Positions 29,102 to 43,576 of a stretch of DNA of 64,000 bases are shown here, one piece after another. Every line of letters starts with the position of its first letter. Position 1 is the stretch's first letter. The DNA is from Acinetobacter sp. WCHAc010034 (lineage in GTDB: Bacteria > Pseudomonadota > Gammaproteobacteria > Pseudomonadales > Moraxellaceae). The stretch is from positions 1,860,001 to 1,924,000 of the forward strand of contig NZ_CP032279.1 of assembly GCF_001696615.3 (NCBI RefSeq). The letters run 5' to 3'. Made by a program: the position numbers and the translations under genes. The notes under the pieces were generated by a model. That model saw only the letters and a program-made list of their open reading frames with translations. It made no database searches and was not told the DNA's origin.

Positions 29102-29216
29102 GGTTGTTCCTTGGCGATGGCTGGCTGCAACGGCTGCCCGGGCAATTTATTCTGGATTTATTGTATAGAAAGCAGGCGCAGTGTAAAAGAAATAAGCGCG
29201 CTGCCTTTTTCCCGCA

Positions 29217-29249
29217 AAAAAAAGGAACCGCAATTGCGGTTCCTTTTGC
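29217..29249 (-). terminator. Intrinsic terminator of the five-gene surface operon
   Basis: The perfect palindrome AAAGGAACCGCAATTGCGGTTCCTTT is followed on the minus strand by a T-run. It lies 14 bases after the stop of the last gene of the operon. Confidence 0.95.
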
Positions 29250-29262
29250 TTCAGCTGGACAA

Positions 29263-32187
29263 TCACTGCATTTTGATTCCAAAATACAGTGACTTTTCCT
29301 GCTGTGGCAGCAGCTCTTTCAGAATTGCTTTGATTTTGGCGCTACCGTCATCTTCAATTTTATTATTCACGCCGTCAGTAACGTTTTGGCCATTGCTGCC
29401 GATAATCGGCAGGATGTTGGCAGGCGCCCACTGCTTTGTATAGGCGGGATACATATCATTGATCGTCACATTACTTAATGTGGCGCTACCGGAATTTTTC
29501 ACCATAATCCGGTAAATCAGGCATTGATCCGGCTTAAGGCTGGCATTCTGCACTGTATAGGCAGCGCTGATCACCGCTTGAGCATTCGTCATGCTGCAGC
29601 TTGCAACAGGCAGCTGCGACTTCAGAATCTGCAGCTGATTTGGGCTTACGCTAATCAAGTCGGTATTGCTCAAGTCCGCCAGCGCAATTTCTTTGCCGGC
29701 ATTGTTCGGCACAGCAATCAATTTGACCTGGCTGCTCATGCCGTTGGCAGCGGTGGCCGGCGCTTCAACTTTAATGAAGAGCGTCATAGACTGATTGGGC
29801 TGAATGATGAAGCCTGTAACGTCGGCTTCTGTTCCAGTCACCAATAAAGTATCACCGGCATCCAGCGCATCGCTTTTGTTCTTGTCCAGAAACAGGCTGT
29901 ACAGGAAACCGTCATTCGGCAGCGTCAGGCTCAGCCTGCTGACCTTTTCATCTTCTATGCCGTAGTTGGTAATGCGGTGCAGGAATACGTAGGTTCCGCC
30001 AACTGCGACCTGCGCCGACTGATCATTGGCCAGTTCCAGCAGGCGCTGCTTTGGCTGCGGAATGACTGCGTCCAAAATAATGTCACCCAAGCCGGACTGC
30101 AGCGATTCAATGGCAAACCAGATATTGGTTTTTGCGCTTGCCGATGCATAAGCTGTAACGACTGCACAGACTTGGCCGGTAGCGTTGGCCGCCACATTCA
30201 GCTGGCTAATCTGCTGGCTGCTGATGCCCGCTTTGCACTGCCCGGCGTCGGCTTGATAGAATTCAACTTTCAGGCCCGAAGTAAATGGGCTGATCCCGCT
30301 TTTTACCAGCGATGAATAGTCTCCGCTGCTCACTGCTGGTGCAATTGCAGTGCTCGATGCATACAGCTGGTAATCCTGCGCCAGATTGCCGTAGTTCTGT
30401 ATATTCAATGGAAAGTAGGCTTTTCCGCTGCTGTCTGCTGTCTTAGTCCATAGCGGTGTGGCGCCAGTTCGGCCTTCCTGCGCAATATTAAACATGCCAA
30501 CGCCGGTTTCAGATGCTGGCGCGCCTGCTTTGTTATTGGACAAGTCATTTTTGGCAGCATACAGCGTTCTTACTGCAGAAGTATTATTGGCAAGATTCTG
30601 ATCGGTGGTTGATGTGACGGTTGCCGTATTAATAATATGTCCCGCATCCCCCCCCGTCTCTTGATCACTTGACTTGACTTGTAAATTTTTGACCGTAAAT
30701 TTATATTTTTTATTCTTTTCGACACCGCCAGTTAAGTTCAGCCCAGAACCGGTCAGATCTGCTAATTTACCGGCAGCAGTCCACGATGCAGGGCATACTG
30801 CAGGCGCACCCGCTGCGGTTACATCTTCGCAAAGCAGTTCAGTTATGCCATTAACAGTCTGCAAGTTCTTGCCCAATACATCTTTCAGGATAACATTTTG
30901 CGCATCAACAATTGTTTTGTTATTTAATTCAACAGTATAGCTTATATAATTTCCCGGTTGCGGAATTGAGCCGGCGGTTAATGTCTTGATGACTTCTAAA
31001 TCAGTATCATCATCCTTAAGCGTTAAATTAAAACTGTACAATGGATTGCTGCCGCCGCAGGATTCCATATTGGTCGTAACAGCGCCGCTGTTCTTCGTCA
31101 ATGCAAAGGCCAAAGGTAAGGTTTTATCCCCCTCAATATTTTTATTATCCGTAAGCTGAATGACCAAATCCTGAATCAGCACTCCCTGCGCATAATCTAA
31201 GCCGCTATTGTAGGTTGGCCGATATTTAAAAGTGATATTGCCTTTTCCATCATTGGTATCGGGCGTAATGATCACAGTCGAAGCGCTACTACGCCTAGCC
31301 AGCACATAATCTGTGCCATATATTGCGCGCTGCGCCAAAGGTATGCCCGCATCATACTGAATTTTAAACTCTAATTCCGGCATGTCAGCAGCGCTTAGAA
31401 TCTGCCCGACGAGCTTGAATGGAACGCTCTGCGAACTGCTGTTATTTTCAACATAATTGCCGTTTTGCGTAGAGAATTCAACCGCTGGTTTTAAGTTAAT
31501 TTTAACATTATCAATGAAGTTCCCTTGACTAGCAGTAGCTCCAGCAACTTTTGCTTGAAAAACAAATGAATAGTTCGCAGCTTGAGTTATATAAGCTGCC
31601 ATATTTACTTTAGCCACTGAGGTCTGTGTCGCCCATGTACGAACTGTGCTGTGGACAGGGCTAAGTCCTAATGGAATTTTTCCATTCCATGTGCTGCGGC
31701 CGCTCAACTGGCCTAAAAAGAACTCTGCTGTTTCTTCTTTTTTATCCCGAGTCGCATGGTCAAAGCTCCAGCTGAACTCATCGTCAGGAACTAGGCAGAC
31801 GGTTTGATAAATGTTGGAAGACTCCATCGCATTAAGTTCAGCATATTGATTATCTGCATAGCTTGTTGTTGATGGACGATTAGGGTTGTCCGCAATGCCG
31901 GTTGCCCCAGGCCCTTTCCAGAATTCAACAGGATACTTATTATTTGAGCTCTGCGAGTGGGTAGTTCTCCATCCTGGTACATACATTGCTGTACCAATAA
32001 GAGCAGGATCTGCATCTAAATAAGTCCATGAACTTGAAATTACGGGCTTTTGTATATCCAAATTGACAAAGCTACGCTGAATTCTCGTAGTTGAAGGAGG
32101 CAAATTGGCATCTGCCGCATAAACCTCAGCAGCGCCAGCCAGCACAAGCGAAGACGCCAAAACATGACCTAAATATTGCTTCATCAT
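29263..32187 (-). CDS. Large secreted DUF11-domain surface protein, 974 aa
   Basis: Last gene of the surface operon. It has a signal peptide (about residues 1-25, ending in AEVYA), then an N-terminal globular domain (about 35-235) with EFSWSFDHATR, in the style of adhesin ligand domains. A Calx-beta-like region (about 250-400) has NGNYVENNSSSQSVPF. At least one DUF11 repeat follows, near 405-545 (DLEVIKTLTAGSIPQPGNYI and YTVELNNKTIVDAQN). The C-terminal module, with SLKPDQCLIYRIMVKNSG and TINDMYPAYT, closely resembles the end of the 935-aa protein in the same operon. There is no membrane anchor or LPXTG. It probably sits at the cell surface; its ligand is unknown. The stop of the OmpA-like gene is one base from its start. 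Confidence 0.8.
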   Translation of the reverse strand: MMKQYLGHVLASSLVLAGAAEVYAADANLPPSTTRIQRSFVNLDIQKPVISSSWTYLDADPALIGTAMYVPGWRTTHSQSSNNKYPVEFWKGPGATGIADNPNRPSTTSYADNQYAELNAMESSNIYQTVCLVPDDEFSWSFDHATRDKKEETAEFFLGQLSGRSTWNGKIPLGLSPVHSTVRTWATQTSVAKVNMAAYITQAANYSFVFQAKVAGATASQGNFIDNVKINLKPAVEFSTQNGNYVENNSSSQSVPFKLVGQILSAADMPELEFKIQYDAGIPLAQRAIYGTDYVLARRSSASTVIITPDTNDGKGNITFKYRPTYNSGLDYAQGVLIQDLVIQLTDNKNIEGDKTLPLAFALTKNSGAVTTNMESCGGSNPLYSFNLTLKDDDTDLEVIKTLTAGSIPQPGNYISYTVELNNKTIVDAQNVILKDVLGKNLQTVNGITELLCEDVTAAGAPAVCPASWTAAGKLADLTGSGLNLTGGVEKNKKYKFTVKNLQVKSSDQETGGDAGHIINTATVTSTTDQNLANNTSAVRTLYAAKNDLSNNKAGAPASETGVGMFNIAQEGRTGATPLWTKTADSSGKAYFPLNIQNYGNLAQDYQLYASSTAIAPAVSSGDYSSLVKSGISPFTSGLKVEFYQADAGQCKAGISSQQISQLNVAANATGQVCAVVTAYASASAKTNIWFAIESLQSGLGDIILDAVIPQPKQRLLELANDQSAQVAVGGTYVFLHRITNYGIEDEKVSRLSLTLPNDGFLYSLFLDKNKSDALDAGDTLLVTGTEADVTGFIIQPNQSMTLFIKVEAPATAANGMSSQVKLIAVPNNAGKEIALADLSNTDLISVSPNQLQILKSQLPVASCSMTNAQAVISAAYTVQNASLKPDQCLIYRIMVKNSGSATLSNVTINDMYPAYTKQWAPANILPIIGSNGQNVTDGVNNKIEDDGSAKIKAILKELLPQQEKSLYFGIKMQ

Positions 32188-32188
32188 T

Positions 32189-33268
32189 TTAGTTTACCTT
32201 CACTTTTTGCTGATCTGATTCTATCTGTAAATCTTGCCACTGCGGTTCTAATTTTACTGCAACCTGACCGCTGCTGAGCTGCAGCACCACCCGGCGGCTT
32301 TTGGCCGCGGCCAGCCGGAGGTCTGCATCGGCCTGCAAATCCACAGCGCCTTTCGCCTCTGACTGCATGCGCTGCGCAGCAATGCCCCGCGCTGCCAAAT
32401 AATCCTGCACGGACTGAATGCGGCGCTGCGCAAGCGCGAGATTGTATCTCTCCGTCGCGCGCTTATCGGTATAGCCCAGCAAAGTGACCTGCATTTGAGG
32501 GTACTGAGTGAATACCGCAATAAACTGGTCTAAAACTTTTTGGCTTTCACTGCTCAAGTCCGCGCTGTCTAAAGCAAAATGCACCACGTTGCTTAAGCGC
32601 ACGCCAGCCGCAGCCGGATCTGCAACCAAAGGCCAAAACTCCGGGTTGACGCCGGAACAGCCCTGCCCATTCAGCTGCTGCAGCGCTGGAAGCTGTTCAG
32701 GATGCCAAGCCGGCGCAGCTGCGCCGGGCTGAGTGGCGCTGGCCTGCGCCACTTGATAAACGGCGCGTTCCGCGGCCTGAAAGTGCTCTCTGGCATGGCG
32801 CCAGCCAAGTTCGCAGTATTCCGCTGCAGCCCACACCAGCATGACTTCCGCCTGTGCCAGCGGCTCCGGCGCGCGCTCCAGCGCACCCTGCTGCTTGAAA
32901 TATTCAATCTGCTGCCATAAATCGCGGCGCATCACTTGGGAAACGCTTAATACCGGCGTCGCTAAAGGCAGAGGCTGACGCTGCTGCAGGGCCTGAGCGA
33001 TGCCTTGCGCCTGCTGCCAAGCCTGCTGCCCTGCGCTGCTCAGGCTGCCTTCAGAGATTTCATGGCGCGCATAGCTCAGCCACATTTGGCCTTTATAGGC
33101 CTGATAACGCTCCTGCCCCGATGCGGCTTGGCGCTGCTGTTCCAGTGCAGCCGCCAGCTCATCTATTTGCGCCGCAGCCGGCGGATAACTGCCGTTCTGC
33201 AGGCCGCCTGCCAGCGCTGCGCTGAGGCTGCTCCCCAGAACGGCCAGGCATAATAAAGCTACTTTCAT
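32189..33268 (-). CDS. OmpA-family peptidoglycan-associated protein
   Basis: A 359-residue protein with a signal peptide (residues 1-20, ending in AALA), a helical Gln/Ala-rich middle (about 30-215) and an OmpA C-terminal domain (about 225-340). That domain contains VHFALDSADLSSESQKVLDQ, TLLGYTDKRATERYNLALAQ and RIQSVQDYLAARGI, the residues that bind diaminopimelate in peptidoglycan. It lacks a barrel of its own. It lies directly between the giant barrel gene (three bases) and the 974-aa gene (one base), so the three are almost certainly co-translated. It is likely the peptidoglycan tether of the assembly. Confidence 0.9.
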   Translation of the reverse strand: MKVALLCLAVLGSSLSAALAGGLQNGSYPPAAAQIDELAAALEQQRQAASGQERYQAYKGQMWLSYARHEISEGSLSSAGQQAWQQAQGIAQALQQRQPLPLATPVLSVSQVMRRDLWQQIEYFKQQGALERAPEPLAQAEVMLVWAAAEYCELGWRHAREHFQAAERAVYQVAQASATQPGAAAPAWHPEQLPALQQLNGQGCSGVNPEFWPLVADPAAAGVRLSNVVHFALDSADLSSESQKVLDQFIAVFTQYPQMQVTLLGYTDKRATERYNLALAQRRIQSVQDYLAARGIAAQRMQSEAKGAVDLQADADLRLAAAKSRRVVLQLSSGQVAVKLEPQWQDLQIESDQQKVKVN

Positions 33269-33271
33269 GGT

Positions 33272-36200
33272 TTACTGCCCCTGCCCCGGCTCTAAAGAAA
33301 AGTTAGCACCTGCCGAACGGCGTCCAAATAAATCTTCATCAAATTTGAATCTGAATCGGATATAAGCGCCCTGGCCGGTAGAGCTGGTATTCGCCAGTTC
33401 GTCATCCTGATAGCCAAGGAAGTTGTAGCCAGCAGAAAGCCAGAGGTTGGCTGCCGCCAAATAGCCGACTTCCGCCCCAAGCAGGTAGCGCGTTCCCGCG
33501 CCGCGGTTTGCCCAAAGCGCCCCGGTTTGCAGGCTGGCATCCCAGCGCTCATTGATGTCATAAAGCGCGCGGCCGCTGACCAGTTGCGTCAATGCGCTGC
33601 TGCGCACATCATATTCATCCAGAACCGACCACTTGGCCGCATAGCGCCCTGACAGGGTAAACTGGCGCAGCGGATGCCAGTTGACATGCGTGGAGCTGAC
33701 ATAGGCGCTGCGCTTGAACTCAGCTTCCAAATCAGTTGCGTTATCTTCATAGTAGTGCTCTATTTTAGCCAGCACATCCAGTTTATTCTGCTCAAAGTCG
33801 CGCCATGCCATACCCAGCTGGAAGCGGTTTCTCAAATGGTCGCCCTGTTCAGCATCTTTGCTGTCAATAAAATTCAGCGTGTTTTTAGCCAGCACGGTTA
33901 AATCTTCATTCAGCTTGCGCGCATAGCCCACTGTATTGATCAAGGTATCTGAATTGTCTGAACGCCGGCCTTCCAGGCGGGTCATGGCTTTCCAGTCATC
34001 ATGGGCTAAATATTCCAAGCCCAAAGTGGCGGCTGTAGAATCCTTGCCGTCATTTTCCGGATTTTTAGAAACGGTCTGGATGCGCTCGAAGCTGGTGCTC
34101 AAGTACACTTTCGGCATAAGCTGCCAGCGGTTGCGCAAGCCCAGGGCAGCTTCCGCTTCCCGGCTGCTCATTCCATCCGCCACCCGGTATTCGCTGAATG
34201 CGGAACCGTCTTTCATGTAATTGCTGCTGATGCCGAATATGGTGCTGTTGGTTTCTTCCGTAGTATTCAGCGAATATAAGCCGTCAATTGATGAAATCAC
34301 CTCATGGCGCGCATACAGCTCAGTATTCGGCAAGACCTGCATGGTGCCGCCCAGCGCCACCACCTGCTTCTCTGAATCAGACACATCCTGTTCATATTCT
34401 GCAAAAACGCTCGCGCCTTTCCACGGGAGCTTGCCTGTAAACTTCACTCTGGCGGTGGTGCCGTTATAGGCTCCCATGTTTTCAGTGGCCTGTGTCGCAG
34501 CCTCGCTGCTTTCATCGTAATAGCGCAGGCCCAGTTCAACAGCAAGTACCTTAAAGAAGCTGCGTTCAATGCTGGCAGATAAGCCTGTACGCACGCCGCT
34601 GTTATTGCGGTCTTCAGTCCGGATCGCTTCAGCGCGCGCCAAACCGACCTTCGGAATCGGCAGAGAAGCCTTCAGGCCGCTTTCCATGCGTCCAGCGCTG
34701 ATGGTCGCCGCATCATTCTGGAAGCCTTCCTGCGCCTGCTGATGGTAGATGCGCAGGCTGCCGGCGCTTGGCGCATATTCAAATTCAACCCGCGCCGCCG
34801 TGCCTTCATCTTTGGCTGCAGCCGGTGCAGCGCTGCTGATTTGCGCAATCTGGTCTACATCTGAAGCGCTATTTTTTGACTGCGCAATTTCAGCAATAAA
34901 CTTGCCGTGCTGCCCGACTTTAACCACGGTATTGACGCTGGCAATCTGCTCTTCTTTGAGCGGATCGGCGCTTTTCACAAAAGAGCCGCCCAGCTTTAAA
35001 TGGCTCTTGACTGCATAGCTGAAGCTGACCCCGCCCACCTGATATTCTTCGCCGATATCTTCCGCTTCCACGGTAATGCGGACATAGTTCGGGTTCAGAT
35101 CAGCATCAACACTGGAAACAGCCTCTTTCAAATAGATGCTGCTGCTGTACGTGTCGACTTCATAGTCCGCAAAGCGCGTCAGTGTTTTGCGTGAAATAAT
35201 CAAGCCCGGGTTATTGCGGTCGCGGGTTAAAATCTCGACTTTTTCACTGTTTTCCAGCATCTGGTCATTGCTGATCGCGCCCAGGCTGTAAGGCCCGGTG
35301 ATGCCCATCGCGCGGTTTTCCGTCACCACCTGGCGCGATTTGGTTTCGGCGCCAAAAGCGGCGGCCTGCAGCTTATCGCCGTCATGCCCCAGCTTGAAGC
35401 CGGTCAGAGAGCGGTTGTACTGGCCGAGCGATAAGCCTTCGTCTTTCTCTGTGCGGGTCACATAGTCGCCGTACATGGCGTAAGAGCGCCCTTTATCCAC
35501 GCGCACATACAGTTTGCTGGTCGATTGGGCTTCAAAGCCTTTGGCTGCCGCATCGCCATACACCGGATAATATTCGTCCGGCTGAATGTCGCGAAATAAT
35601 CGCTGCTTCGAGCTTTTATCCGAATCATAGGCCAAAGTCAGCAGGTAATCGCCCTTGACCTTGCCTTTTAAAAACATGGCGGCGCGCCCGTTCAGGCTGG
35701 TATCGCCGCCCCAATCCGCAATTTCAGTCAGCTGGTCTTCAAAGCCGTCATCGCGGTTAACGCTGTGCAGCTTATTGCGGTCAAAATTATTAAAGTTGAC
35801 CGATCCTTCAATTAAGCCCACAGCAATCAATGGACGCAAATCCGCCAGAAACTGGATGTCGATTTCCTGCTTCAGCAGGCCGCTGCTGGCGCGCAGCTTG
35901 CCGCGGCCCGGCGCGTTTGGCGCAAGCACCGGAATCACCATTTCTCCGCCTTCAATAAAGGTCTGGATGCCCGGCTCATTCGGATTCAGATCCTGCAGGT
36001 CAATCAGTCCGATGTCGCTTTCCAGCGTGATTGCCGTACGGGCTGCGATTTTCACCCCGTCTTTATCCTGCAGGCGGAGCACCAGCTGCAGAACATCTTT
36101 GCCGTTGGCGGCCGCTGCGGCGGCTGCAGCATGCTCCAGCTGCAGGCGCTGGATTTCGCCCGGAACTACTACCTGGATCTGCTGACTTTCACGCACATTG

Positions 36201-39200
36201 CCCATAAAGTCCAGCTGCTCGACCCGGATTTCATTTTTCCCGGTGTTCAATTCAACGCCGATGAATTCCTTGCCCTGCTTCTGCTGTTCTGCTAAGACCG
36301 ACAGTTTGCCTAGGCGTTTTTCAGATACAGCTTGGCCATTGACCAGCACGCGCTGATCAGCTCCCGCTGTGCCCTGAAGCTGAATGGCAGTTTGCGCAAA
36401 AGGTAAAATCTGGCCGTCTTTCAGGTTTAAAATGCTTAAAACATTGCTGTCGCTGCGCTTCAAGTACTCTTCTAAATTAACCAATGCCGGCGGCTTGACC
36501 GGGTCAATCGCCAGCTGCCGGCCTTTAGGCGCATCGGCAACGCTTTTATTTAAAATGCAGCTCTGATCATTATCATTCGCTAAGCAGCCATTTGTATTAT
36601 CCGAACGGCTGCTCTGTTCAATATACGATGGCGCATCAATCGACAGCTGCTTGCTAATGGCTTTTTCTAAATTTAAATTGCTTTGATTGATTTTTTCCTG
36701 GCGCTGCTTCACCGCCTCAGTCAGCGGCGCTGAACAGGCTCCCGCCTGATCCGCCATGGCGAAATCGGCGCGGTGCAGCTCACCGCGCTTTACATCAACA
36801 AAGCGGCTTGACGGATCTCCGGCATTGCGGTTTGACTGAATGACCAGCTCCGCGCCGGCTGGCAAAGTGGTACGGTCCAGTTTCAGCACATGGGTTTTCG
36901 GCGAAACGCCGTAAAAGTCATATTTGCCTTCACGATCGGTGACGACATAACTGCCGTCTTCCATATACAGGCGCACACCTGGAACGCCTAATTCGCCTTT
37001 GTCCTGCATGCCGTTGCGGTTGCAATCCGTATACACTTTGCCAATGACAAAAGCGTCTGAGCTGAATACGCCCGGACGAACCTTCACTTTAGCCTGCGCT
37101 TCATTCGAATTCAGGCCGTGGCTCACCGCGCGCGCGCGGTTAATTCCGTCGCCATTCAGCGCATTCGGGCCGACCAGCACCCGGTATTCAATTTTTGCGC
37201 TGGCGTTGACCGCCAGATCACCCAAGCCTAGGGTTAAATACGGCCCTTTTCCGCCTTCAGGTTCAGCTGCCGGCTTGCCATCAACCCGCAGGGTGTTCGG
37301 CACATAGCTGAAGCCGCGCGGCAAGGTATCCTGAACCTTAACATCTTTGGCAATGTCATCACCCTGATTGCTGACGGTAATACTGTAACTGGTAAAGTCG
37401 CCCAGTTCCACACTGCTGTCGCGCGCGGTTTTCTTCACCATCAGGCTTTGGCCCGAACTGAGCGGATCAATTGGAATATCAATATTCAGCGCTGGGCTGG
37501 TTAAATCCAGCTTAAAGCTGCGCCCGTACGAATAATCCGGATCTACTGCAGTAATGCCGAAAGCCTTAAACGAGCTGACCGGGTAGGCATTCTGATCACT
37601 GCTGAACTGGTAGCTTTTACCGTTAATCGGGGCTGAAGTATCAACCAGCAGCGTATATTCACCGGGCAGCACAAATGGATAAATGAATTCCCCTTGAGCA
37701 TTGGTCTGCTGTTCAGCCGGAATGCTGCCAGTCATGTTTCCGTCAGCATCCTGGCCAAAAGCCACATTAGCTGCCACAGGCCGGCCATTTTTATCCGCCA
37801 AAGTCACCCGGGCATTTGCCACCGGCTGTCCTGTTTTTGCATTAAAAACAATGCCGTAAGGGTCAATCAGAATATCAGTTGAAATGTCCGGTTTTGGCGT
37901 ATTGGTGCTGTTGCCGTTTTGATCCAGGCAGTCAATAATCGTTGCCGTGACTTTGTCGCGGCGCACGGTTTGCAGAATGTCATCCTGGGTATTTGGCGCT
38001 GTGCCGTCCCATGCTGCCGTATTAACTTCAAAGTGGAAAACTCCGCTGTTGGCTTCGGTTTCTTTGCCGTTCGTATACAGGAAATCGCCGGTCAGCGCCG
38101 ATTTAACCAGAACCTTAACCTGATCCTGATTATGCGAAGCATTGCAGATTGCTGCATTGGCTTTCAGATAAACCGGCTCTTTGACCTTGCCCGTTTGAAT
38201 CACATTCTTGTAATCGGGCGTTGTGCCATCAAGCGTTGCGTCAGCAGCTTCAATTATGGTTTGCACTAAATCTGAAGGGGTTTTTCTTTGCTGATTGGCC
38301 GCGCTGTTCCATGAAAACAGATAAGCTTGATTTTTCAGCACGCTGTAGCTTAAGTTGGCGGCTGTTTTAACCTTCAGGATAATTTTGCTTTCCTGCCCGG
38401 CAGCAAAGCTTCGGTAGCCGACAACCGCATGGCTGATCTTATTCTTATTGGCAGGCTGGGCCGATACATAGCGCCCTTCGCCGGTTTTATACAGCACTTT
38501 GGCTTCGGCCGTGCTGACTGAAACTTCATCATACAGCGTATTTCCCGGCAATGGATCTTCAACAATGATCCATTCGCCCTGCACGCCGTCTACATGGACG
38601 GATAGCGGTGCAATCGGCAAATTGCCGCTGTTCTTAACCATCAGGCTGTAGGTAATGGCTTCCTGTCCGCCCGCATACTGAATATTGGTTTTATCTACAG
38701 CCTTATGAATGCTCAGCTGCGGAACAACAATAGTGGCAGGGTCATCCGCCGTGCTGCTTGGCTGCGGGCCTTCCTGAATGACTGCGGTCACCGGCATTTT
38801 AATCTGGGTATTATGCGGTGTGTCTTTAGAGGTATCCGCAACAACCCACAGATAAGCTTTTTCGCCCGGCTGAAGCGCCAAGCCCTGGCTGAGCAGTGTA
38901 TCCAAGCCAGTATAAAATTGATCATCGCCATCATCCACATAAATGCGGATATTGGATAAATGGCTGGCATTGTCCGCGCTTAATTTGAATGTTGCCGGCG
39001 CATTGCTTAAGTTCACCAGTTCATTGAACCAGTAAACTGCGGTGCCCGCTTCAACGACCTGATGCGCGCTTGGAGAAAGCTTAAGTGCGTATAATTCTGA
39101 AACTCTGACTTCTACTTTATTGGACTGGACATCTTTTGAATGCAGCAGCCCGTCGCCGCCCAGCACTTCATACTTTGCATAGGCGATATTTGGAATAATT

Positions 39201-39313
39201 GTGCCAGCATTTGGCATAGTCGCAGCAGCATGTCCGTATTGAGCAAAAAATAAAGCAGACGCAAGTGCAGACAGCGACAGCGCCTCGACTTTTCTATCCA
39301 TTGCCTTTTTCAT
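33272..39313 (-). CDS. Giant outer-membrane barrel protein with Ig-like/DUF11 repeats, 2013 aa
   Basis: A 2013-residue exported protein whose signal peptide ends in YGHAA. The N-terminal module AGTIIPNIAYAKYE resembles that of the 935-aa protein. Then come DUF11-like segments (about 210-340 and 625-745, KTARDSSVELGDFTSYSITV), a carboxypeptidase-regulatory-like domain (about 482-560) and an SdrD_B-like domain (about 755-850, IGKVYTDCNRNGMQDKGELG). From about residue 1160 to the end the sequence is amphipathic strand-turn-strand throughout, with PDEYYPVYGDAA near its start, and looks like a very large outer-membrane barrel. I start it at the ATG at 39313; an ATG at 39301 is also possible. Export pore or anchor is inference. 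A terminator lies between this gene and the one before it. Confidence 0.85.
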   Translation of the reverse strand: MKKAMDRKVEALSLSALASALFFAQYGHAAATMPNAGTIIPNIAYAKYEVLGGDGLLHSKDVQSNKVEVRVSELYALKLSPSAHQVVEAGTAVYWFNELVNLSNAPATFKLSADNASHLSNIRIYVDDGDDQFYTGLDTLLSQGLALQPGEKAYLWVVADTSKDTPHNTQIKMPVTAVIQEGPQPSSTADDPATIVVPQLSIHKAVDKTNIQYAGGQEAITYSLMVKNSGNLPIAPLSVHVDGVQGEWIIVEDPLPGNTLYDEVSVSTAEAKVLYKTGEGRYVSAQPANKNKISHAVVGYRSFAAGQESKIILKVKTAANLSYSVLKNQAYLFSWNSAANQQRKTPSDLVQTIIEAADATLDGTTPDYKNVIQTGKVKEPVYLKANAAICNASHNQDQVKVLVKSALTGDFLYTNGKETEANSGVFHFEVNTAAWDGTAPNTQDDILQTVRRDKVTATIIDCLDQNGNSTNTPKPDISTDILIDPYGIVFNAKTGQPVANARVTLADKNGRPVAANVAFGQDADGNMTGSIPAEQQTNAQGEFIYPFVLPGEYTLLVDTSAPINGKSYQFSSDQNAYPVSSFKAFGITAVDPDYSYGRSFKLDLTSPALNIDIPIDPLSSGQSLMVKKTARDSSVELGDFTSYSITVSNQGDDIAKDVKVQDTLPRGFSYVPNTLRVDGKPAAEPEGGKGPYLTLGLGDLAVNASAKIEYRVLVGPNALNGDGINRARAVSHGLNSNEAQAKVKVRPGVFSSDAFVIGKVYTDCNRNGMQDKGELGVPGVRLYMEDGSYVVTDREGKYDFYGVSPKTHVLKLDRTTLPAGAELVIQSNRNAGDPSSRFVDVKRGELHRADFAMADQAGACSAPLTEAVKQRQEKINQSNLNLEKAISKQLSIDAPSYIEQSSRSDNTNGCLANDNDQSCILNKSVADAPKGRQLAIDPVKPPALVNLEEYLKRSDSNVLSILNLKDGQILPFAQTAIQLQGTAGADQRVLVNGQAVSEKRLGKLSVLAEQQKQGKEFIGVELNTGKNEIRVEQLDFMGNVRESQQIQVVVPGEIQRLQLEHAAAAAAAANGKDVLQLVLRLQDKDGVKIAARTAITLESDIGLIDLQDLNPNEPGIQTFIEGGEMVIPVLAPNAPGRGKLRASSGLLKQEIDIQFLADLRPLIAVGLIEGSVNFNNFDRNKLHSVNRDDGFEDQLTEIADWGGDTSLNGRAAMFLKGKVKGDYLLTLAYDSDKSSKQRLFRDIQPDEYYPVYGDAAAKGFEAQSTSKLYVRVDKGRSYAMYGDYVTRTEKDEGLSLGQYNRSLTGFKLGHDGDKLQAAAFGAETKSRQVVTENRAMGITGPYSLGAISNDQMLENSEKVEILTRDRNNPGLIISRKTLTRFADYEVDTYSSSIYLKEAVSSVDADLNPNYVRITVEAEDIGEEYQVGGVSFSYAVKSHLKLGGSFVKSADPLKEEQIASVNTVVKVGQHGKFIAEIAQSKNSASDVDQIAQISSAAPAAAKDEGTAARVEFEYAPSAGSLRIYHQQAQEGFQNDAATISAGRMESGLKASLPIPKVGLARAEAIRTEDRNNSGVRTGLSASIERSFFKVLAVELGLRYYDESSEAATQATENMGAYNGTTARVKFTGKLPWKGASVFAEYEQDVSDSEKQVVALGGTMQVLPNTELYARHEVISSIDGLYSLNTTEETNSTIFGISSNYMKDGSAFSEYRVADGMSSREAEAALGLRNRWQLMPKVYLSTSFERIQTVSKNPENDGKDSTAATLGLEYLAHDDWKAMTRLEGRRSDNSDTLINTVGYARKLNEDLTVLAKNTLNFIDSKDAEQGDHLRNRFQLGMAWRDFEQNKLDVLAKIEHYYEDNATDLEAEFKRSAYVSSTHVNWHPLRQFTLSGRYAAKWSVLDEYDVRSSALTQLVSGRALYDINERWDASLQTGALWANRGAGTRYLLGAEVGYLAAANLWLSAGYNFLGYQDDELANTSSTGQGAYIRFRFKFDEDLFGRRSAGANFSLEPGQGQ

Positions 39314-39353
39314 TGACAAGCCCCAAAACAAAAAAAATAAAATACAAACAAGT

Positions 39354-39395
39354 AAAAAAACAGCTGCGCTCCCCTTTCTTAAAAGAGGAGTGCAG
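39354..39395 (-). terminator. Intrinsic terminator inside the surface operon
   Basis: On the minus strand CTGCACTCCTCTTT-taag-AAAGGGGAGCGCAG is followed by CTGTTTTTTT, 16 bases after the stop of the 935-aa gene and 41 bases before the giant-barrel start. It should cut down read-through into the three downstream genes. Confidence 0.85.
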
Positions 39396-39410
39396 GCTTA
39401 AAAGGATGAA

Positions 39411-42218
39411 TTATGGAGCGGCTTTATCAACCGTAACGGCGAACTTCAATGTCGCAGAAGTGCCTGGAGTTAAAGTGCCGACCTTGTAATTTACATTGCC
39501 GCCAGATTCCGTCGGCGCATCGCCCTGGGTTAATGGATTCCGCGCAATAGAGCCGGTTTTGTATGTTGTATATGCAGGCACGGCATCATTGATTACAACA
39601 GCTGTTGCGTCAGCATTACCTTGGTTGGTTGCTGTCACTTTATAGAATACACACTGGCCCGGTTTAGCATTCTGCAGATTTACAGTGTAATCAGCGTCAG
39701 CCGGCGCAGCCGTACAGTCTGCAGCAAACTGGAATTTCTCCAAGCGGACTGAACCCAAGTTGATTACTGTGCGGTCTGTAATCGACAGAATGCTGTTTGA
39801 ACCTAATGCAGCGCCTGATTCAGGCTGAATTTGCACTGTAGACGTATAAGACTGGCCAGCAGTTGCTGTTGCAGCCGCTTCAACTTTTACATAAACAGTA
39901 ACAGACTCACCTTGCTGTAAGCCTGCCAGTCCAGCTTTATCAAATTTTGCATTTTGCAGAATGCTGTTTAAGGTGCCCGCGCCAGTGCCTGTTACACGCT
40001 CTTTAACATCATCCAGCAGGCCATCACCATTCACATCTACATAAACAGTAACTGTTTCACCAGCTGTCGGCGTTGGTAAAGCAAAGTTCAGTGTTTTTCC
40101 GCCAGCTGCTTCAGCTACGTTACCAATGTTGGTTAGAGTATGGCTGTAAATAATGCTGCCGCCTGGCGCCAGCTGGCCTTGACGGTCCGGCGTAAAGCTG
40201 ATGGCGCGCTGTTCTGCAACCGTCAGCTTAAATCCAATGCTGTCGTTGCTGCCGGTAGATGGCGAACTGATCTTGACTGTAATGGTTTCAGGAACACTTG
40301 TTGCTGGCGTGCCGTCTGGCGCAGTAACGACTAGACAGTAGCTGCCCGTACTGCCATTCGCAATCGTGCCTGAGTTGGTTACTTTCGTATTTGTACAGTT
40401 GCCGGCAGCGTCTTTTCCAAAGACCTCTGCTGTCCAGCCCGTTGGAACGCCTTCAACAGCAATATTGTAGTTGTCCGGCGTGCCACCTGTATTCTGGATG
40501 GTAACGTCCAGCGGCTTAGATGTGCCCGGGACTAAAGCCGTGTCAGGAACGCCTGTGCTGCTGTTCGCGCCGTCGCCGACATAGTCTGGTGTGCCTGCTG
40601 TACCTTTATTATGCACCAAGTCTACAGCGCTTTTCGTAAAGGCATCAACAACTAGAGAAATGGTATCTTTATTGCTGCTGTTGTTGGCTGAAGTGCTAGT
40701 CATGGTCAGCGTAGTGCCGTCCGCTACTGTGCCGTTAGTTGGCAAAGTAACGCGCACCACAAATTTCAGGCTGCCGCCAGCCTGAATTGGGCCTGTATTG
40801 TTGTCTGTCACCGGAGTTTTTCCATCCGCTTTCAGAATTTCAACAATGCTGCCGGCCGGCAAAGATGAGCCAGCGGCTGTAGCAACATTCAGATTATAGC
40901 TATCTGTAGTTGTGCCGGAGTTGTGAACATAAATAACATCGCCACCTGTAGCGTTATTGCCGAAGACAATAGCCTGGCCTTGCGAAGCTGTTGTATGAAC
41001 TTGGTCGTCAATGCCTGCAGCACTGCCGGCTGGAACATTGTTGTCAATCCAAGAGGCAGATGCATCATCGTTAATCGAGTGTGCTGTTGTGCCTACAACA
41101 GTGACATTGTTCGGGTTGGATGGAACAAGACTCGTGTCTGGAGTTGCCGGCGGAACAGATGGGACATTATCCGGCGTTAATGGCGTATTTGTACCTGGCG
41201 TAAAGCCATCAGTATCTGCGTATGCGGTGTTGGTGATTTTCTCGCCATTGGCAGCAGCCGTTTTTACTTTAACAGTAAAAGTTAACTTACCGGTTGAACC
41301 GGCAGCAAGCTTGCCTGCATTAAAGGTAAAGGCCTCTTTCGCATCGCTACGGCCACTAGCTACATAAGCAAATTTATCACTATCTGTACCATCACGAGTT
41401 AATGCTGAAGTGCTGCCATTATAATGCGCAGTTAATTTGGCATCAGCCGTATCAGCAAATGTTACATTGCTTGGCAACACGTCATAGATAATGACGTCTG
41501 ATGCAGCGGCTGCTGTGCCTTTATTCTGGAAAGTCAAAGTATAGGTAATGTAGCCATTCGCACCAATTGTGCTGACGCTGGCTTCTTTTTTAATTTCAAT
41601 GACTGCGCCGGTAATAATAGTCGCTTTATCAGTATTGGACGCTGTATTTTTGCCGGCATCATATAAAGCCGTTGTTTTTGCTGTTGCAGTTAGAGTTAGG
41701 CTGTCATTCTGGCCTGCCGCTGCCGCTAGCGGCGTTTTAGCAACCACAACCAGGCCGATAGATTCGCCAGCAGCTAATTCAATCGCTGTTGTTGGAGTTA
41801 AAGCAGCAGCGCCATTATCCGCTACGCCATCCTGATTGCGGTCAATATAGACATCATAGCTGGCCCAGTCGAAAGTGCCGGCATCATTTGCAATGCTGAG
41901 CGTGAATGAGTCTGTGCCATTACCAGTGTTGGTCAAGATATGCGGGAAGCTTACACTACTGTTGGCCGCTGTCTGACGTTCGTTAGACTGCACAAGAGTA
42001 AAGCTGCCTACTTGCGCTACAAGGGTTTTAACCACGTTAGACGTTACAACACGCTCAGTCTGCGTATTGTCTGTATACGTTGCGGTTGCAACGTTACTGA
42101 TATTTTGACCTGCTAAAGGCGTAGAAGCTGCGGCCATCGCAGAACTGCCAAACAGAGATACCCCACCCGCAACTGCTAAAGCAGCCGCGACTTTACTTAA
42201 TTGAAAATGTTGTTTCAT
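39411..42218 (-). CDS. Large secreted DUF11-repeat surface protein, 935 aa
   Basis: Second gene of the surface operon, with a signal peptide (about residues 1-30, ending in SSAMA). The mature protein is Thr/Ala/Asn/Gly-rich with almost no Cys and looks like a chain of Ig-like DUF11 modules. An N-terminal module has AGQNISNVATATYTD. DUF11 units follow, for example EIKKEASVSTIGANGYITYT with FQNKGTAAAASDVIIYDVLP, and further repeats contain VFGNNATGGDVIYVHNSG and SPSTGSNDSIGFKL. The C-terminal module, with AKPGQCVFYKVTATNQG and VVINDAVPAYTTY, is shared with the 974-aa protein. ASYDVYIDRNQDGVADNG and VYVDVNGDGLLDD look like Ca-binding loops. No transmembrane anchor is visible. It starts at the ATG at 42218. 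It could be the main surface polymer, since it precedes an internal terminator. Confidence 0.82.
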   Translation of the reverse strand: MKQHFQLSKVAAALAVAGGVSLFGSSAMAAASTPLAGQNISNVATATYTDNTQTERVVTSNVVKTLVAQVGSFTLVQSNERQTAANSSVSFPHILTNTGNGTDSFTLSIANDAGTFDWASYDVYIDRNQDGVADNGAAALTPTTAIELAAGESIGLVVVAKTPLAAAAGQNDSLTLTATAKTTALYDAGKNTASNTDKATIITGAVIEIKKEASVSTIGANGYITYTLTFQNKGTAAAASDVIIYDVLPSNVTFADTADAKLTAHYNGSTSALTRDGTDSDKFAYVASGRSDAKEAFTFNAGKLAAGSTGKLTFTVKVKTAAANGEKITNTAYADTDGFTPGTNTPLTPDNVPSVPPATPDTSLVPSNPNNVTVVGTTAHSINDDASASWIDNNVPAGSAAGIDDQVHTTASQGQAIVFGNNATGGDVIYVHNSGTTTDSYNLNVATAAGSSLPAGSIVEILKADGKTPVTDNNTGPIQAGGSLKFVVRVTLPTNGTVADGTTLTMTSTSANNSSNKDTISLVVDAFTKSAVDLVHNKGTAGTPDYVGDGANSSTGVPDTALVPGTSKPLDVTIQNTGGTPDNYNIAVEGVPTGWTAEVFGKDAAGNCTNTKVTNSGTIANGSTGSYCLVVTAPDGTPATSVPETITVKISSPSTGSNDSIGFKLTVAEQRAISFTPDRQGQLAPGGSIIYSHTLTNIGNVAEAAGGKTLNFALPTPTAGETVTVYVDVNGDGLLDDVKERVTGTGAGTLNSILQNAKFDKAGLAGLQQGESVTVYVKVEAAATATAGQSYTSTVQIQPESGAALGSNSILSITDRTVINLGSVRLEKFQFAADCTAAPADADYTVNLQNAKPGQCVFYKVTATNQGNADATAVVINDAVPAYTTYKTGSIARNPLTQGDAPTESGGNVNYKVGTLTPGTSATLKFAVTVDKAAP

Positions 42219-42260
42219 AAGAAAACTCAACAATAAAACGTTTTAAACGACGAGAAAAAA

Positions 42261-42740
42261 TTATTCGGAAGCATTGACACGAACTTGAGCGGAAACCGAA
42301 ATTTTTTGTTTTGGCTTCAGCTCATTCACATTCCATTGCAATGCACGATACTCACGCAGCGGAACATTTACTTTTTTGCCATTTTCGATACGAGTCAGCG
42401 GCGCTTTAGCAAAGCTTTTCCCATCTAAAGAGGCATAAGTATCTTTTGGTGCACTTTGGCCGGTATAAGTGACAGACTCTGGAAGCGGCAAATTCAATTT
42501 CAGATTTTTCAGGCTATTCGAAGATACATTCGAATAATCAACGCGGTATTCCAATACATCCTTCGGCTTGACCTGATCAGTAGCCTTAAGTTCCTTTTTA
42601 TTTTTCTTGCCGGCATCCACCTGAAATACTTTCATTTCAGCTTTTAATGGCGCGTCATTGGCATATGCCAAATTCGCCACACCCAGCGCCGAACTTGAAA
42701 GCAAAACTAAACAAATGCCTTTCTGTACTTGTGTAACCAT
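42261..42740 (-). CDS. Small secreted DUF11-like protein, 159 aa
   Basis: First gene of the surface operon. The signal peptide (about residues 1-28, ending in LAYA) is followed by one Ig-like DUF11-type domain with KPKDVLEYRVDYSNVSSN, LKLNLPLPESVTYTGQS and a C-terminal strand KQKISVSAQVRVN. It is Lys-rich and has no Cys. The ATG at 42740 is used; the longer frame starts at a TTG. The gene ends 42 bases before the 935-aa gene. A single-domain partner of the multi-domain proteins may cap, nucleate or chaperone them, but this is only inference from position and fold. Confidence 0.78.
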   Translation of the reverse strand: MVTQVQKGICLVLLSSSALGVANLAYANDAPLKAEMKVFQVDAGKKNKKELKATDQVKPKDVLEYRVDYSNVSSNSLKNLKLNLPLPESVTYTGQSAPKDTYASLDGKSFAKAPLTRIENGKKVNVPLREYRALQWNVNELKPKQKISVSAQVRVNASE

Positions 42741-43387
42741 AAGAAATTGCTTCAATTTTTTAAATTATGTACATTTTTACTACAGTTAAGAAAAAAAACA
42801 AACATAAAAATGCAGAATTCATCACGTTTTTTGTTTTTTTTGATTGTTTTGCTGCATTTGGGAGTGGGTAGAAAGAAATTTGAAACTATTTAAAGCCCTC
42901 TGCATACCATAAAATTAAAGCGGCATGCATCACATAAAAGGCATGAAATTCAATTTTATATTTATAAAAATGCATAATTCATCACATCAAGTCTAAATTT
43001 TGATTTTTTTTACGCATAAAAATGCATAAACATGACAAATATAGAAAAATATCGACAAAATGAAGAATATTTACTGTAACGGCTGCTTTAGCCAAATGAA
43101 TCCGCCTGAAATATAAACCATACAGCATTGGACATGGTTTTAATTAATAAGAAAAACTTAACAATAAGGTTGATTCAAAACAGCTTTCTCCTCTAAAATT
43201 TATTTTTACAACAGCAGGGAAAAGCATCAGAAGCGGAATTTAAAACTCAAAGCATATGCAGAGCACAATGGATTTCCTAAAAATACCATCCTGAATTACT
43301 CCAGCTCCATTTTTCCCAGATTCCCCCCCCTCCGCTTCAATGCAGATAAGTAGCAGTAGCCTTTCCCTTCCCTGTAAAACAAACGCA
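42741..43387 (-). promoter_or_regulatory. Long AT-rich regulatory region of the surface operon with direct repeats
   Basis: About 650 bases without a gene. ATAAAAATGCAGAATTCATC at about 42804-42823 recurs as ATAAAAATGCATAATTCATC at about 42964-42983, 160 bases away, and in part as ATAAAAATGCATAAACATGA at about 43016-43035. The first two continue with AC and are followed by T-rich, TTTGAT-containing sequence. TACATAAT on the minus strand just upstream of the operon is a possible -10 element. The repeats suggest several sites for one regulator. Confidence 0.5.
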
Positions 43388-43432: not shown

Positions 43433-43576
43433 TCACAGCGTATGCTGATCCTTCACGTCTTCCAGCACATCATCCAGCTCTTCAGGATTTTTCATCAAGT
43501 GCAGGATAGACAGCGCCAGCCCGCCCCACAAAAACAGCATGGAAATAATCATCATCACAATTGCGGAAGTATTCAT
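43433..43576 (-). CDS. metS: Small subunit of a MetP-type methionine/alanine importer
   Basis: A 47-residue membrane peptide, MNTSAIVMMIISMLFLWGGL followed by ALSILHLMKNP and an acidic tail. One hydrophobic segment at about residues 4-28 and the NPEEL-type motif match the MetS/MmpS small subunits that accompany NSS transporters such as MetP of Corynebacterium. The ATG lies one base after the stop of the transporter gene, so the two are translated together. The TCAAGTG-like end of the gene is close to the terminator. Confidence 0.88.
   Translation of the reverse strand: MNTSAIVMMIISMLFLWGGLALSILHLMKNPEELDDVLEDVKDQHTL

What the first reader, a model, noticed from the sequence alone, without database searches (positions are those of the whole stretch)
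29217..42740. Five-gene surface operon: small DUF11 protein, two large DUF11 proteins, a 2013-aa barrel and an OmpA anchor
Seen: five minus-strand genes with gaps of 42, 97, 3 and 1 bases and a strong terminator at the end. All have signal peptides, and none has a sortase, LPXTG or autotransporter translocator that I recognise. Known: DUF11 and SdrD_B modules occur in surface adhesins, and OmpA C-terminal domains bind peptidoglycan. Inferred: the barrel protein may export or hold the DUF11 proteins at the surface and the OmpA-like protein may tether the whole to the wall, a possible undescribed surface-display or fibre system.
Basis: partly seen in the sequence, partly recalled or inferred. 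Interest (0 to 1): 0.85.

Follow-up and report, generated by a model that had tools for sequence, protein, structure and literature searches.

The report
Ig-fibre operon with giant barrel
A conserved gene set that appears to build a chain-like surface fibre in Gram-negative bacteria: its parts carry matching half-domains that look made to click together and lock with self-forming chemical bonds, beside an unusually large outer-membrane barrel; the joining is inferred from sequence and has not been tested.

Summary
In detail: five minus-strand genes, gaps 42/97/3/1, signal sequences, strong terminator. The set recurs: in 79 related loci small lies upstream of the barrel in 73, DUF11a in 73, and the "OmpA" partner directly downstream in 68. 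In 175 Acinetobacter genomes all 45 with a barrel have DUF11 matches; 126 of 130 without one have none. The barrel domain matched no Pfam, NCBIfam or solved family here. The A. silvestris adhesin whose DUF11 domain was crystallised is encoded beside such a barrel.

New reading: in most cases small, DUF11a, DUF11b and the variable adhesin X end in a DUF11 domain cut before the two strands that carry the isopeptide Asn; DUF11a, DUF11b and X keep Lys and Asp. The N-termini of DUF11a and the barrel resemble the missing strands, with near-invariant Asn. This suggests tip–DUF11a–barrel joined by donor strands and locked by isopeptide bonds, small being an isopeptide-dead cap.

The mechanism is untested.

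The parts
42261..42740 (-). small, 159 aa: signal peptide plus one DUF11-type domain (about residues 50-159) cut at its C-terminus; in the family the catalytic Asp position is mostly Leu
39411..42218 (-). DUF11a, 935 aa: donor-like N-terminus, several DUF11-type domains, cut C-terminal DUF11 domain
42012..42113 (-). DUF11a donor-like segment (about residues 36-69), Asn42 (conserved 72/73); 11.3 bits on the tail profile
39414..39761 (-). DUF11a C-terminal acceptor-like domain (about residues 820-935): Lys828, Asp878, Cys835/Cys856; ends before the Asn-bearing strand
33272..39313 (-). barrel protein, 2013 aa
39089..39205 (-). barrel protein donor-like N-terminus (about residues 37-75), Asn42 (conserved 79/79); the window copy itself scores only -0.3 bits on the tail profile
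37088..37456 (-). complete internal DUF11 domain of the barrel protein (residues 620-742) with Lys628, Asp662, Asn725 aligned to 9IFR
33275..35827 (-). C-terminal barrel (about residues 1163-2013), about 40 predicted strands in the second model
35093..35311 (-). well-conserved inserted domain (about residues 1335-1407) between predicted strands 8 and 9, plug-like by position
32189..33268 (-). OmpA-like partner, 359 aa: conserved N-terminal domain plus C-terminal OmpA domain
32309..32578 (-). OmpA (PF00691) domain, residues 231-320, with an Asp...Arg pair 15 residues apart
29263..32187 (-). DUF11b, 974 aa: N-terminal 390 aa without Pfam match at E<=0.1, DUF11 at 396-539, cut C-terminal DUF11 domain; no donor-like N-terminus
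29266..29640 (-). DUF11b C-terminal acceptor-like domain (about residues 850-974): Lys856, Asp911, Cys864/Cys889
29216..29247 (-). intrinsic terminator at the end of the operon
42804..43017 (.). AT-rich upstream region with a 54-nt direct repeat (42804-42857 and 42964-43017, 74% alike), possible regulator site

Best explanation
The operon builds a multi-subunit Ig-domain surface fibre based on a giant outer-membrane barrel. Shown by sequence: the soluble subunits (small, DUF11a, DUF11b/X) mostly end in a DUF11 (CnaA-like, 'CLIPPER') domain that stops before its last two strands, and DUF11a and the barrel protein begin with a segment that resembles those strands. Inferred: DUF11a's N-terminus fills the gap of the tip adhesin (DUF11b here, X elsewhere) and the barrel's N-terminus fills the gap of DUF11a, giving the chain tip - DUF11a - barrel. 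Inferred: Lys and Asp of the acceptor react with the Asn of the donor strand, so each joint becomes a covalent intermolecular isopeptide bond, a natural version of split-domain tag/catcher pairs. Inferred: small has the same gap but no catalytic Asp, so it can cover donor strands reversibly (chaperone or cap) without locking. Inferred: the large barrel (about 40 predicted strands) gives passage to a chain of folded domains, and the partner protein holds the base, through peptidoglycan where its OmpA domain is kept. Where the adhesin is one chain with its own OmpA domain (A. silvestris type), cut ends are absent and no small gene or donor was seen, as this model predicts. My estimates: dedicated adhesin/fibre cassette 0.85; donor-strand joining 0.65; covalent lock 0.5; barrel as exit pore 0.6.
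For: Cassette: 79 loci: small 73, DUF11a 73, partner 68; 43 of 43 strong-barrel Acinetobacter genomes have a strong small match, 1 of 132 others does; 45 of 45 barrel genomes have DUF11 against 4 of 130 without. Fusions: the OmpA domain lies inside the barrel protein in L174, L175, L176, L180, L181, L202, L051, L052, and at the C-terminus of the adhesin directly upstream of the barrel in 7 loci. Cut ends (last DUF11 domain ends by profile column 101 of 123 within 8 aa of the C-terminus): small 66/75, DUF11a 71/76, DUF11b 9/9, X 33/46 (46 rows hold 3 mis-sorted transporters and 4 duplicates), distant DUF11a 15/21 (21 rows hold some mis-sorted ORFs), third subunit 13/15, small 12/16; barrel 0/79, one-chain adhesins 0/7. 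Donor profile above 5 bits at the N-terminus: DUF11a 47/76, barrel 36/79, small 0/75, X 3/46, DUF11b 0/9, controls 1/412; above 10 bits 35, 15, 0, 0, 0, 0. Residues: DUF11a Lys 72/73 and Asp 72/73, DUF11b 9/9 each, X Asp 45/46; donor Asn 72/73 (DUF11a) and 79/79 (barrel). Lys motif: DUF11a 70/73 (shuffled 3), X 34/42 (shuffled 7). In an alignment with 9IFR the Lys of X, DUF11a and DUF11b falls in the column of 9IFR Lys715 in all 22 of 24 rows that reach it. Complete internal domains keep Lys-Asp-Asn in 198/219. Published: the DUF11 domain 9IFR forms a Lys-Asn isopeptide bond (PMC12617251).
Against: First joining test negative: simply appending N-termini to acceptors gave no gain (own barrel N-term median -1.1 bits, 3/69 above 3 bits; own DUF11a N-term -3.7, 4/69; random 24/345). 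When donors and controls were both cut at their best tail match, 32/69 (barrel) and 35/69 (DUF11a) gained more than 3 bits, against 59/414 controls and 4/69 small: support, not proof. The window's own barrel N-terminus scores -0.3 bits on the tail profile; its case rests on family conservation. The DUF11 profile does not itself place the acceptor Lys: column 7 is unaligned in 52 and Tyr or Phe in 19 of 71 cut DUF11a domains, and Tyr in 9/9 DUF11b, because acceptors carry a Cys-containing insertion after the Lys; the placement rests. In distant lineages the Lys is seen in column 7 in 4/15 cut DUF11a and 0/13 cut third subunits, and the Lys motif in 3/21 and 1/15. Distant donors: 14/21, 12/15, and only 6/18 barrels above 5 bits. 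The one-chain N-terminal test is meaningful for at most 4 of 7, as three are cut at the N-terminus. The donor segment might pack in cis in its own first domain. Loci share descent (42 of 79 are Psychrobacter) and no phylogenetic correction was made. 11/79 loci lack the partner next door.
Confidence: 0.6

Rival explanations
1. Non-covalent donor-strand fibre: the cut domains and donor strands join subunits as in chaperone-usher pili, and Lys/Asp are kept for fold stability only.
For: The cut-end and donor pattern needs only strand complementation; small shows that the same gap persists without the catalytic Asp; Lys mostly not located in distant acceptors.
Against: Lys and Asp are near-invariant in DUF11a and DUF11b domains that have no Asn-bearing strand of their own, and the donor Asn is near-invariant; complete domains of these proteins keep Lys-Asp-Asn in 198/219.
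Confidence: 0.2
2. Giant-barrel autotransporter-like protein: the 1140-residue N-terminal region of the barrel protein is a passenger exported by its own barrel; DUF11a and DUF11b are separate secreted adhesins.
For: C-terminal barrel with a long N-terminal Ig region and signal peptide; no other exporter in the operon.
Against: In relatives an OmpA domain sits before the barrel inside the same chain, which would place that part in the periplasm; in G053 a separate 411-aa gene resembles residues 25-160 of the window's barrel protein (E 2.9e-07); strict co-occurrence with small and DUF11a.
Confidence: 0.12
3. The barrel is an outer-membrane receptor or structural porin, and the DUF11 proteins form a periplasmic or S-layer-like lattice exported by another route (for example type II secretion).
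For: Barrel profile is nearest to the strand pattern of TonB receptors (hhalign 96/90%), although LptD also gives 61% with TonB receptors; Foldseek lists Deinococcus SlpA first.
Against: The crystallised fibrillar adhesin of A. silvestris with CshA_NR2 and GEVED domains is encoded next to such a barrel; no TonB plug reported by Pfam in the window or L189 barrel; DUF11 matches are almost absent without the barrel in Acinetobacter.
Confidence: 0.08

Closest known systems
CLIPPER (DUF11) fibrillar adhesin B9T28_05395 of Acinetobacter silvestris, PDB 9IFR (PMC12617251)
   Same: Same DUF11 domain family with Lys/Asp/Asn; and, found here, encoded next to a barrel of the same family (121/121 residues identical to 9IFR in L189)
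   Different: One 2129-aa chain with its own OmpA domain; no cut end, no donor strand and no small gene found at the locus. The paper's main text does not contain secretion, export, translocat- or barrel
Chaperone-usher pili (FimD, PapC)
Archaeal thread filament of Sulfolobus acidocaldarius (PMC9715654)
   Same: Donor-strand complementation plus proposed intermolecular isopeptide bonds (abstract and passages)
   Different: Bond is between an N-terminal amine and Asn two subunits away, not Lys-Asn of a split domain; no outer membrane or barrel; assembly pathway unknown there
Engineered tag/catcher pairs from split isopeptide domains (SpyTag, isopeptag; recalled; PMC5487036 and PMC6539128 seen only in the listings)
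   Same: Last strand with the reactive side chain supplied in trans to a domain with Lys and acid
   Different: Engineered; here the split would be natural
Type 9 secretion translocon SprA
   Different: Not among the sequence matches of the PDB search; no T9SS sorting domain in the window's subunits

Membership tests
Chaperone-usher pathway | usher family protein (PF00577) | tested here: not met
   No match at E<=0.1; hhalign of two barrel profiles against 20 Acinetobacter ushers 17% and 0.6%
Chaperone-usher pathway | PapD-like two-domain chaperone gene | tested here: not met
   Small is one DUF11-type domain; no PapD family in any of the five proteins
Chaperone-usher pathway | 24-strand barrel with plug between strands | tested here: inconclusive
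   Models of pLDDT 72-74 with about 40 strands and an inserted domain; ushers rank first but within the range of porins
Chaperone-usher pathway | subunits lacking the C-terminal strand, completed by an N-terminal extension | tested here: inconclusive
   The pattern is present in sequence; complementation itself not shown
DUF11/CLIPPER isopeptide domain | Lys, Asp, Asn triad in complete domains | tested here: met
   198 of 219 complete domains; window barrel Lys628/Asp662/Asn725 aligned to 9IFR
OmpA-like peptidoglycan-binding proteins | PF00691 domain with Asp and Arg ligands | tested here: met
   Window protein: 53.1 bits, cut-off 27.2, Asp...Arg spacing 15. For the partner family as a whole it fails: 25 of 67 have the domain
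Classical autotransporter (type V) | autotransporter translocator domain | tested here: not met
   No such Pfam match at E<=0.1
Type 9 secretion | C-terminal sorting domains on cargo | tested here: not met
   None in the window's subunits
Type 9 secretion | SprA homologue | tested here: inconclusive
   Weak fold matches only
Sortase-assembled pili | LPXTG sorting signal on subunits | tested here: not met
   No Gram-positive anchor; the window's DUF11a, DUF11b and small end in the cut DUF11 domain

The most novel reading that the evidence does not exclude
A natural split-isopeptide (tag/catcher-like) assembly line in Gram-negative bacteria: Sec-exported Ig subunits with a catcher at the C-terminus and a tag at the N-terminus are joined covalently in the fixed order tip - DUF11a - barrel, kept apart by a catalytically dead look-alike (small), and displayed through a new family of about 40-strand outer-membrane barrels that also serves, in one-chain form, the crystallised A. 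silvestris adhesin.
Probability: 0.45. Interest if true: 0.95.

Novelty: new variant of a known kind. Interest (0 to 1): 0.82.

Why it matters
DUF11/CLIPPER is described as the most widely distributed of these isopeptide domains (PMC12617251), yet export of such adhesins across a Gram-negative outer membrane is not mentioned there. This work points to a dedicated barrel family (449 tblastn-confirmed relatives in GTDB contigs; 62 of 398 sampled genomes of the phylum at E<=0.001, nine of which match only the Ig part) and to a concrete, testable joint: two residues and one donor segment per subunit. If the joint is covalent it would be a natural, sortase-free covalent fibre in Gram-negatives and a source of new protein-ligation pairs. 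It would also suggest a function for more than a thousand protein clusters (1530, 1142 and 1523; overlap not measured), those with names being called 'SdrD B-like', 'DUF11', 'TonB-dependent receptor' or 'hypothetical'.

Tried and rejected
Filing the barrel as usher, LptD or TonB receptor: no Pfam hit; hhalign usher 17/0.6%, LptD 22/4%, TonB 96/90%, but the control LptD-TonB gives 61% (usher-TonB 12%), so the TonB score is read as a generic strand pattern. RecA hits of DUF11a in the PDB are read as low-complexity artefacts. The reading 'OmpA anchor conserved everywhere' was my own; some searches showed that my OmpA profile had matched the N-terminal domain, so I dropped it. The plain concatenation test failed; its design let unrelated residues lie between the halves; the refined test is. 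A regular-expression count of Lys/Asp was badly framed (window too short, pattern too strict) and is not used; replace it for Lys. In one search the Asn column was read one column off; one search uses column 105. Set X holds 3 transporter proteins and, four proteins entered twice; the distant DUF11a set holds some mis-sorted ORFs; counts are given as run. Of the 8 X proteins without the Lys motif, 3 are the transporters and 4 (L086, L088, L131, L134) show the Lys without the Cys. Weak barrel hits G147 and G159 and weak small hits G137 and G179 were left out of the 2x2 tables; G155 (broken remnants of small and DUF11a, no barrel) was kept as small without barrel. The four DUF11 genomes without a barrel are G137, G155, G179 (64% complete) and G188 (one match at 4e-4). 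The literature search used 'Acinetobacter OR Psychrobacter', which the tool took as a literal phrase, so that term matched nothing. Absences in VIA lists were not used as evidence.
Full report
WHAT IS THERE. Pfam places DUF11 in genes 2, 3 and 5 and weakly in gene 1, SdrD_B and a carboxypeptidase-regulatory-like domain (just below its cut-off) in the barrel protein, and OmpA at the end of gene 4; NCBIfam gives only DUF11-type repeats, below-cut-off fimbrial and anchor models and OmpA-type families. The last ~870 residues of gene 3 match no Pfam or NCBIfam family above cut-off, and the profile search of the PDB gives nothing better than E 0.11, to unrelated proteins. The genome is placed in Acinetobacter because the named nearest proteins are from that genus.

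HOW WIDELY IT OCCURS. A barrel profile finds 449 tblastn-confirmed relatives in GTDB contigs, of which the best 80 were kept as 79 loci: 42 Psychrobacter, 25 Acinetobacter, 3 Alkanindiges, 2 Agitococcus, one each of Fluviicoccus and Moraxella atlantae, and five metagenome bins (Moraxellaceae, Geobacteraceae, Deltaproteobacteria, two unplaced). They are not independent. ORF maps show small upstream of the barrel in 73 of 79, DUF11a in 73 of 79, and the partner directly downstream in 68 of 79. Five of the six losses of small are loci that begin too close to the barrel (L084, L085, L096, L120, L130); L089 has other genes there. In 175 Acinetobacter genomes 43 have a strong barrel and 44 a strong small: 43 shared, 0 barrel without small, 1 small without barrel. 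Counting the one-chain type, 45 have a barrel and 49 a DUF11 match: 45 shared, 0 and 4 unshared, Fisher p 1.5e-37 without correction for descent. A sample of the phylum gives 62 of 398 genomes at E<=0.001, nine of them (family f65) matching only the Ig part. A set with small, barrel, OmpA-type partner and DUF11b, and three short genes in the place of DUF11a, sits on a plasmid of A. haemolyticus; a small-DUF11a-barrel set on a plasmid of Pacificitalea.

TWO LAYOUTS. Layout A is this window's: small, DUF11a, barrel, usually a partner, and a large variable adhesin (DUF11b here; X elsewhere, with SpaA_3, SpaA_4 or DUF7933 domains in several of those scanned). In loci like L177-L179, L193, L203 and L205 (relatives of L179 are named Sphingorhabdus/Sphingomonadaceae) there are two ~350-aa subunits around small. 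Layout B is a one-chain adhesin with its own C-terminal OmpA domain directly upstream of a barrel, seen in seven loci (in L183 the barrel lies in two ORFs). One of them, L189, encodes the 2129-aa A. silvestris adhesin: the 121 residues of the crystallised CLIPPER domain 9IFR are identical to its residues 708-828, and its next gene is the 1237-aa barrel. The paper (abstract and passages; section 8; passages) does not contain the words secretion, export, translocat- or barrel in its main text. Across 41 more distant loci with a barrel, the OmpA domain occurs somewhere in the cassette in 22: as a separate gene in 7, inside the barrel protein in 8 (weak in L052 and L175), inside the adhesin in 7.

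THE PARTNER IS NOT SIMPLY AN OMPA ANCHOR. Of 67 partner proteins only 25 have the OmpA domain; most Psychrobacter partners and four Acinetobacter ones end before it, while a ~200-aa N-terminal domain is shared (one Psychrobacter partner, scanned alone, has no Pfam match). The tether to peptidoglycan is therefore an option, not the core.

THE CUT ENDS AND THE DONOR-LIKE STARTS. I built a 123-column DUF11 profile from domains of these proteins. Complete internal domains keep Lys (column 7), Asp (41) and Asn (105) in 198 of 219. The last domain of the soluble subunits stops by column 101, within 8 residues of the protein end, in 66/75 small, 71/76 DUF11a, 9/9 DUF11b, 33/46 X, and in distant lineages 15/21, 13/15 and 12/16; never in barrels (0/79) or one-chain adhesins (0/7). 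They thus lack the two strands that carry the Asn. Yet Lys and Asp stay: DUF11a 72/73 each, DUF11b 9/9 each, X Asp 45/46. The profile alone does not place this Lys, because the acceptors carry a Cys-containing insertion after it (column 7 is unaligned in 52 and Tyr or Phe in 19 of 71 cut DUF11a domains, and Tyr in 9/9 DUF11b); an alignment with 9IFR and with X proteins that lack the insertion puts it in the column of Lys715 in all 22 of 24 rows that reach it. In small the Asp position is Leu in 65 of 66 cut domains.

A profile of the missing strands, made from 135 distinct tails of complete internal domains, was run on N-termini: above 5 bits in 47/76 DUF11a and 36/79 barrels against 0/75 small, 3/46 X, 0/9 DUF11b and 1/412 unrelated proteins; above 10 bits in 35, 15, 0, 0, 0 and 0. 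The Asn of the motif is kept in 72/73 DUF11a and 79/79 barrels. One-chain adhesins and their barrels show none (0/7, 0/7), but three of those adhesins are cut at the N-terminus. Joining acceptor and donor in silico gave no gain when done crudely and a gain above 3 bits in 32/69 and 35/69 when both sides were trimmed alike, against 59/414 controls and 4/69 for small.

MECHANISM PROPOSED. Acceptor-only proteins (DUF11b/X, small), acceptor-plus-donor (DUF11a) and donor-only (barrel) allow one order: tip - DUF11a - barrel. Small, with the gap but without the acid, would occupy donors reversibly. The joining, the covalent lock, the role of small and export through the barrel are inferences. The one-chain layout fits, because a fibre made in one piece needs neither joints nor cap.

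WHAT IS KNOWN. Intermolecular isopeptide bonds together with donor-strand complementation are proposed for archaeal threads (PMC9715654; abstract and passages), with different chemistry. In the listings of searches I saw no description of this cassette, of the barrel family, or of a natural Lys-Asn split-domain joint in Gram-negatives; only the best rows of each were listed, and subscription journals and preprints are mostly not in that library. Of PMC9210967 only passages were seen.

VERDICT. The recurrence and the split-domain pattern are solid as sequence facts; the assembly model is a strong, cheaply testable hypothesis.

Noticed in passing
window 42804-42857 and 42964-43017: 54-nt direct repeat (74% alike) plus three ATAAAAATGCA copies in the AT-rich region upstream of the operon; possible regulator site.
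   Followed up: partly
L185 9294-21659 (A. haemolyticus w12 plasmid p4): The operon lies on a 302-kb plasmid with a transposase just downstream and arsenic-resistance genes about 5 kb upstream; the DUF11a position holds three short genes there.
   Followed up: no
(P0145, P0166, P0174, H4, H10, H12): Barrels or partial matches of this family in Xanthomonadaceae and some Alphaproteobacteria are named 'TonB-dependent receptor', although the two barrels scanned here (window, L189) show no TonB plug in Pfam.
   Followed up: partly
L189 adhesin residues 748-749: The published catalytic Asp-748 of 9IFR reads Asn at 748 and Asp at 749 in the sequence, while Lys715 and Asn806 fit; probably a numbering slip.
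   Followed up: yes
G027:C11, G003:C6:641653, G171:C1:613642, G102:C6, G189:C6: About 1380-aa DUF11 proteins encoded away from the barrel locus in several Acinetobacter genomes, perhaps alternative tip proteins.
   Followed up: no
L171/L196 (G283) and L172/L197 (G476): Two genomes carry both a barrel with a separate OmpA-type partner and a one-chain-type barrel.
   Followed up: no
L103, L108, L115, L117, L124: Psychrobacter loci with a second DUF11a-like gene (in L124 also a second small gene) upstream of the cassette, which may let subunits be exchanged.
   Followed up: no
window 43433-43576: A 47-codon ORF follows the sodium-dependent transporter gene and resembles, from memory, the small subunit of two-part transporters of that family.
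   Followed up: no
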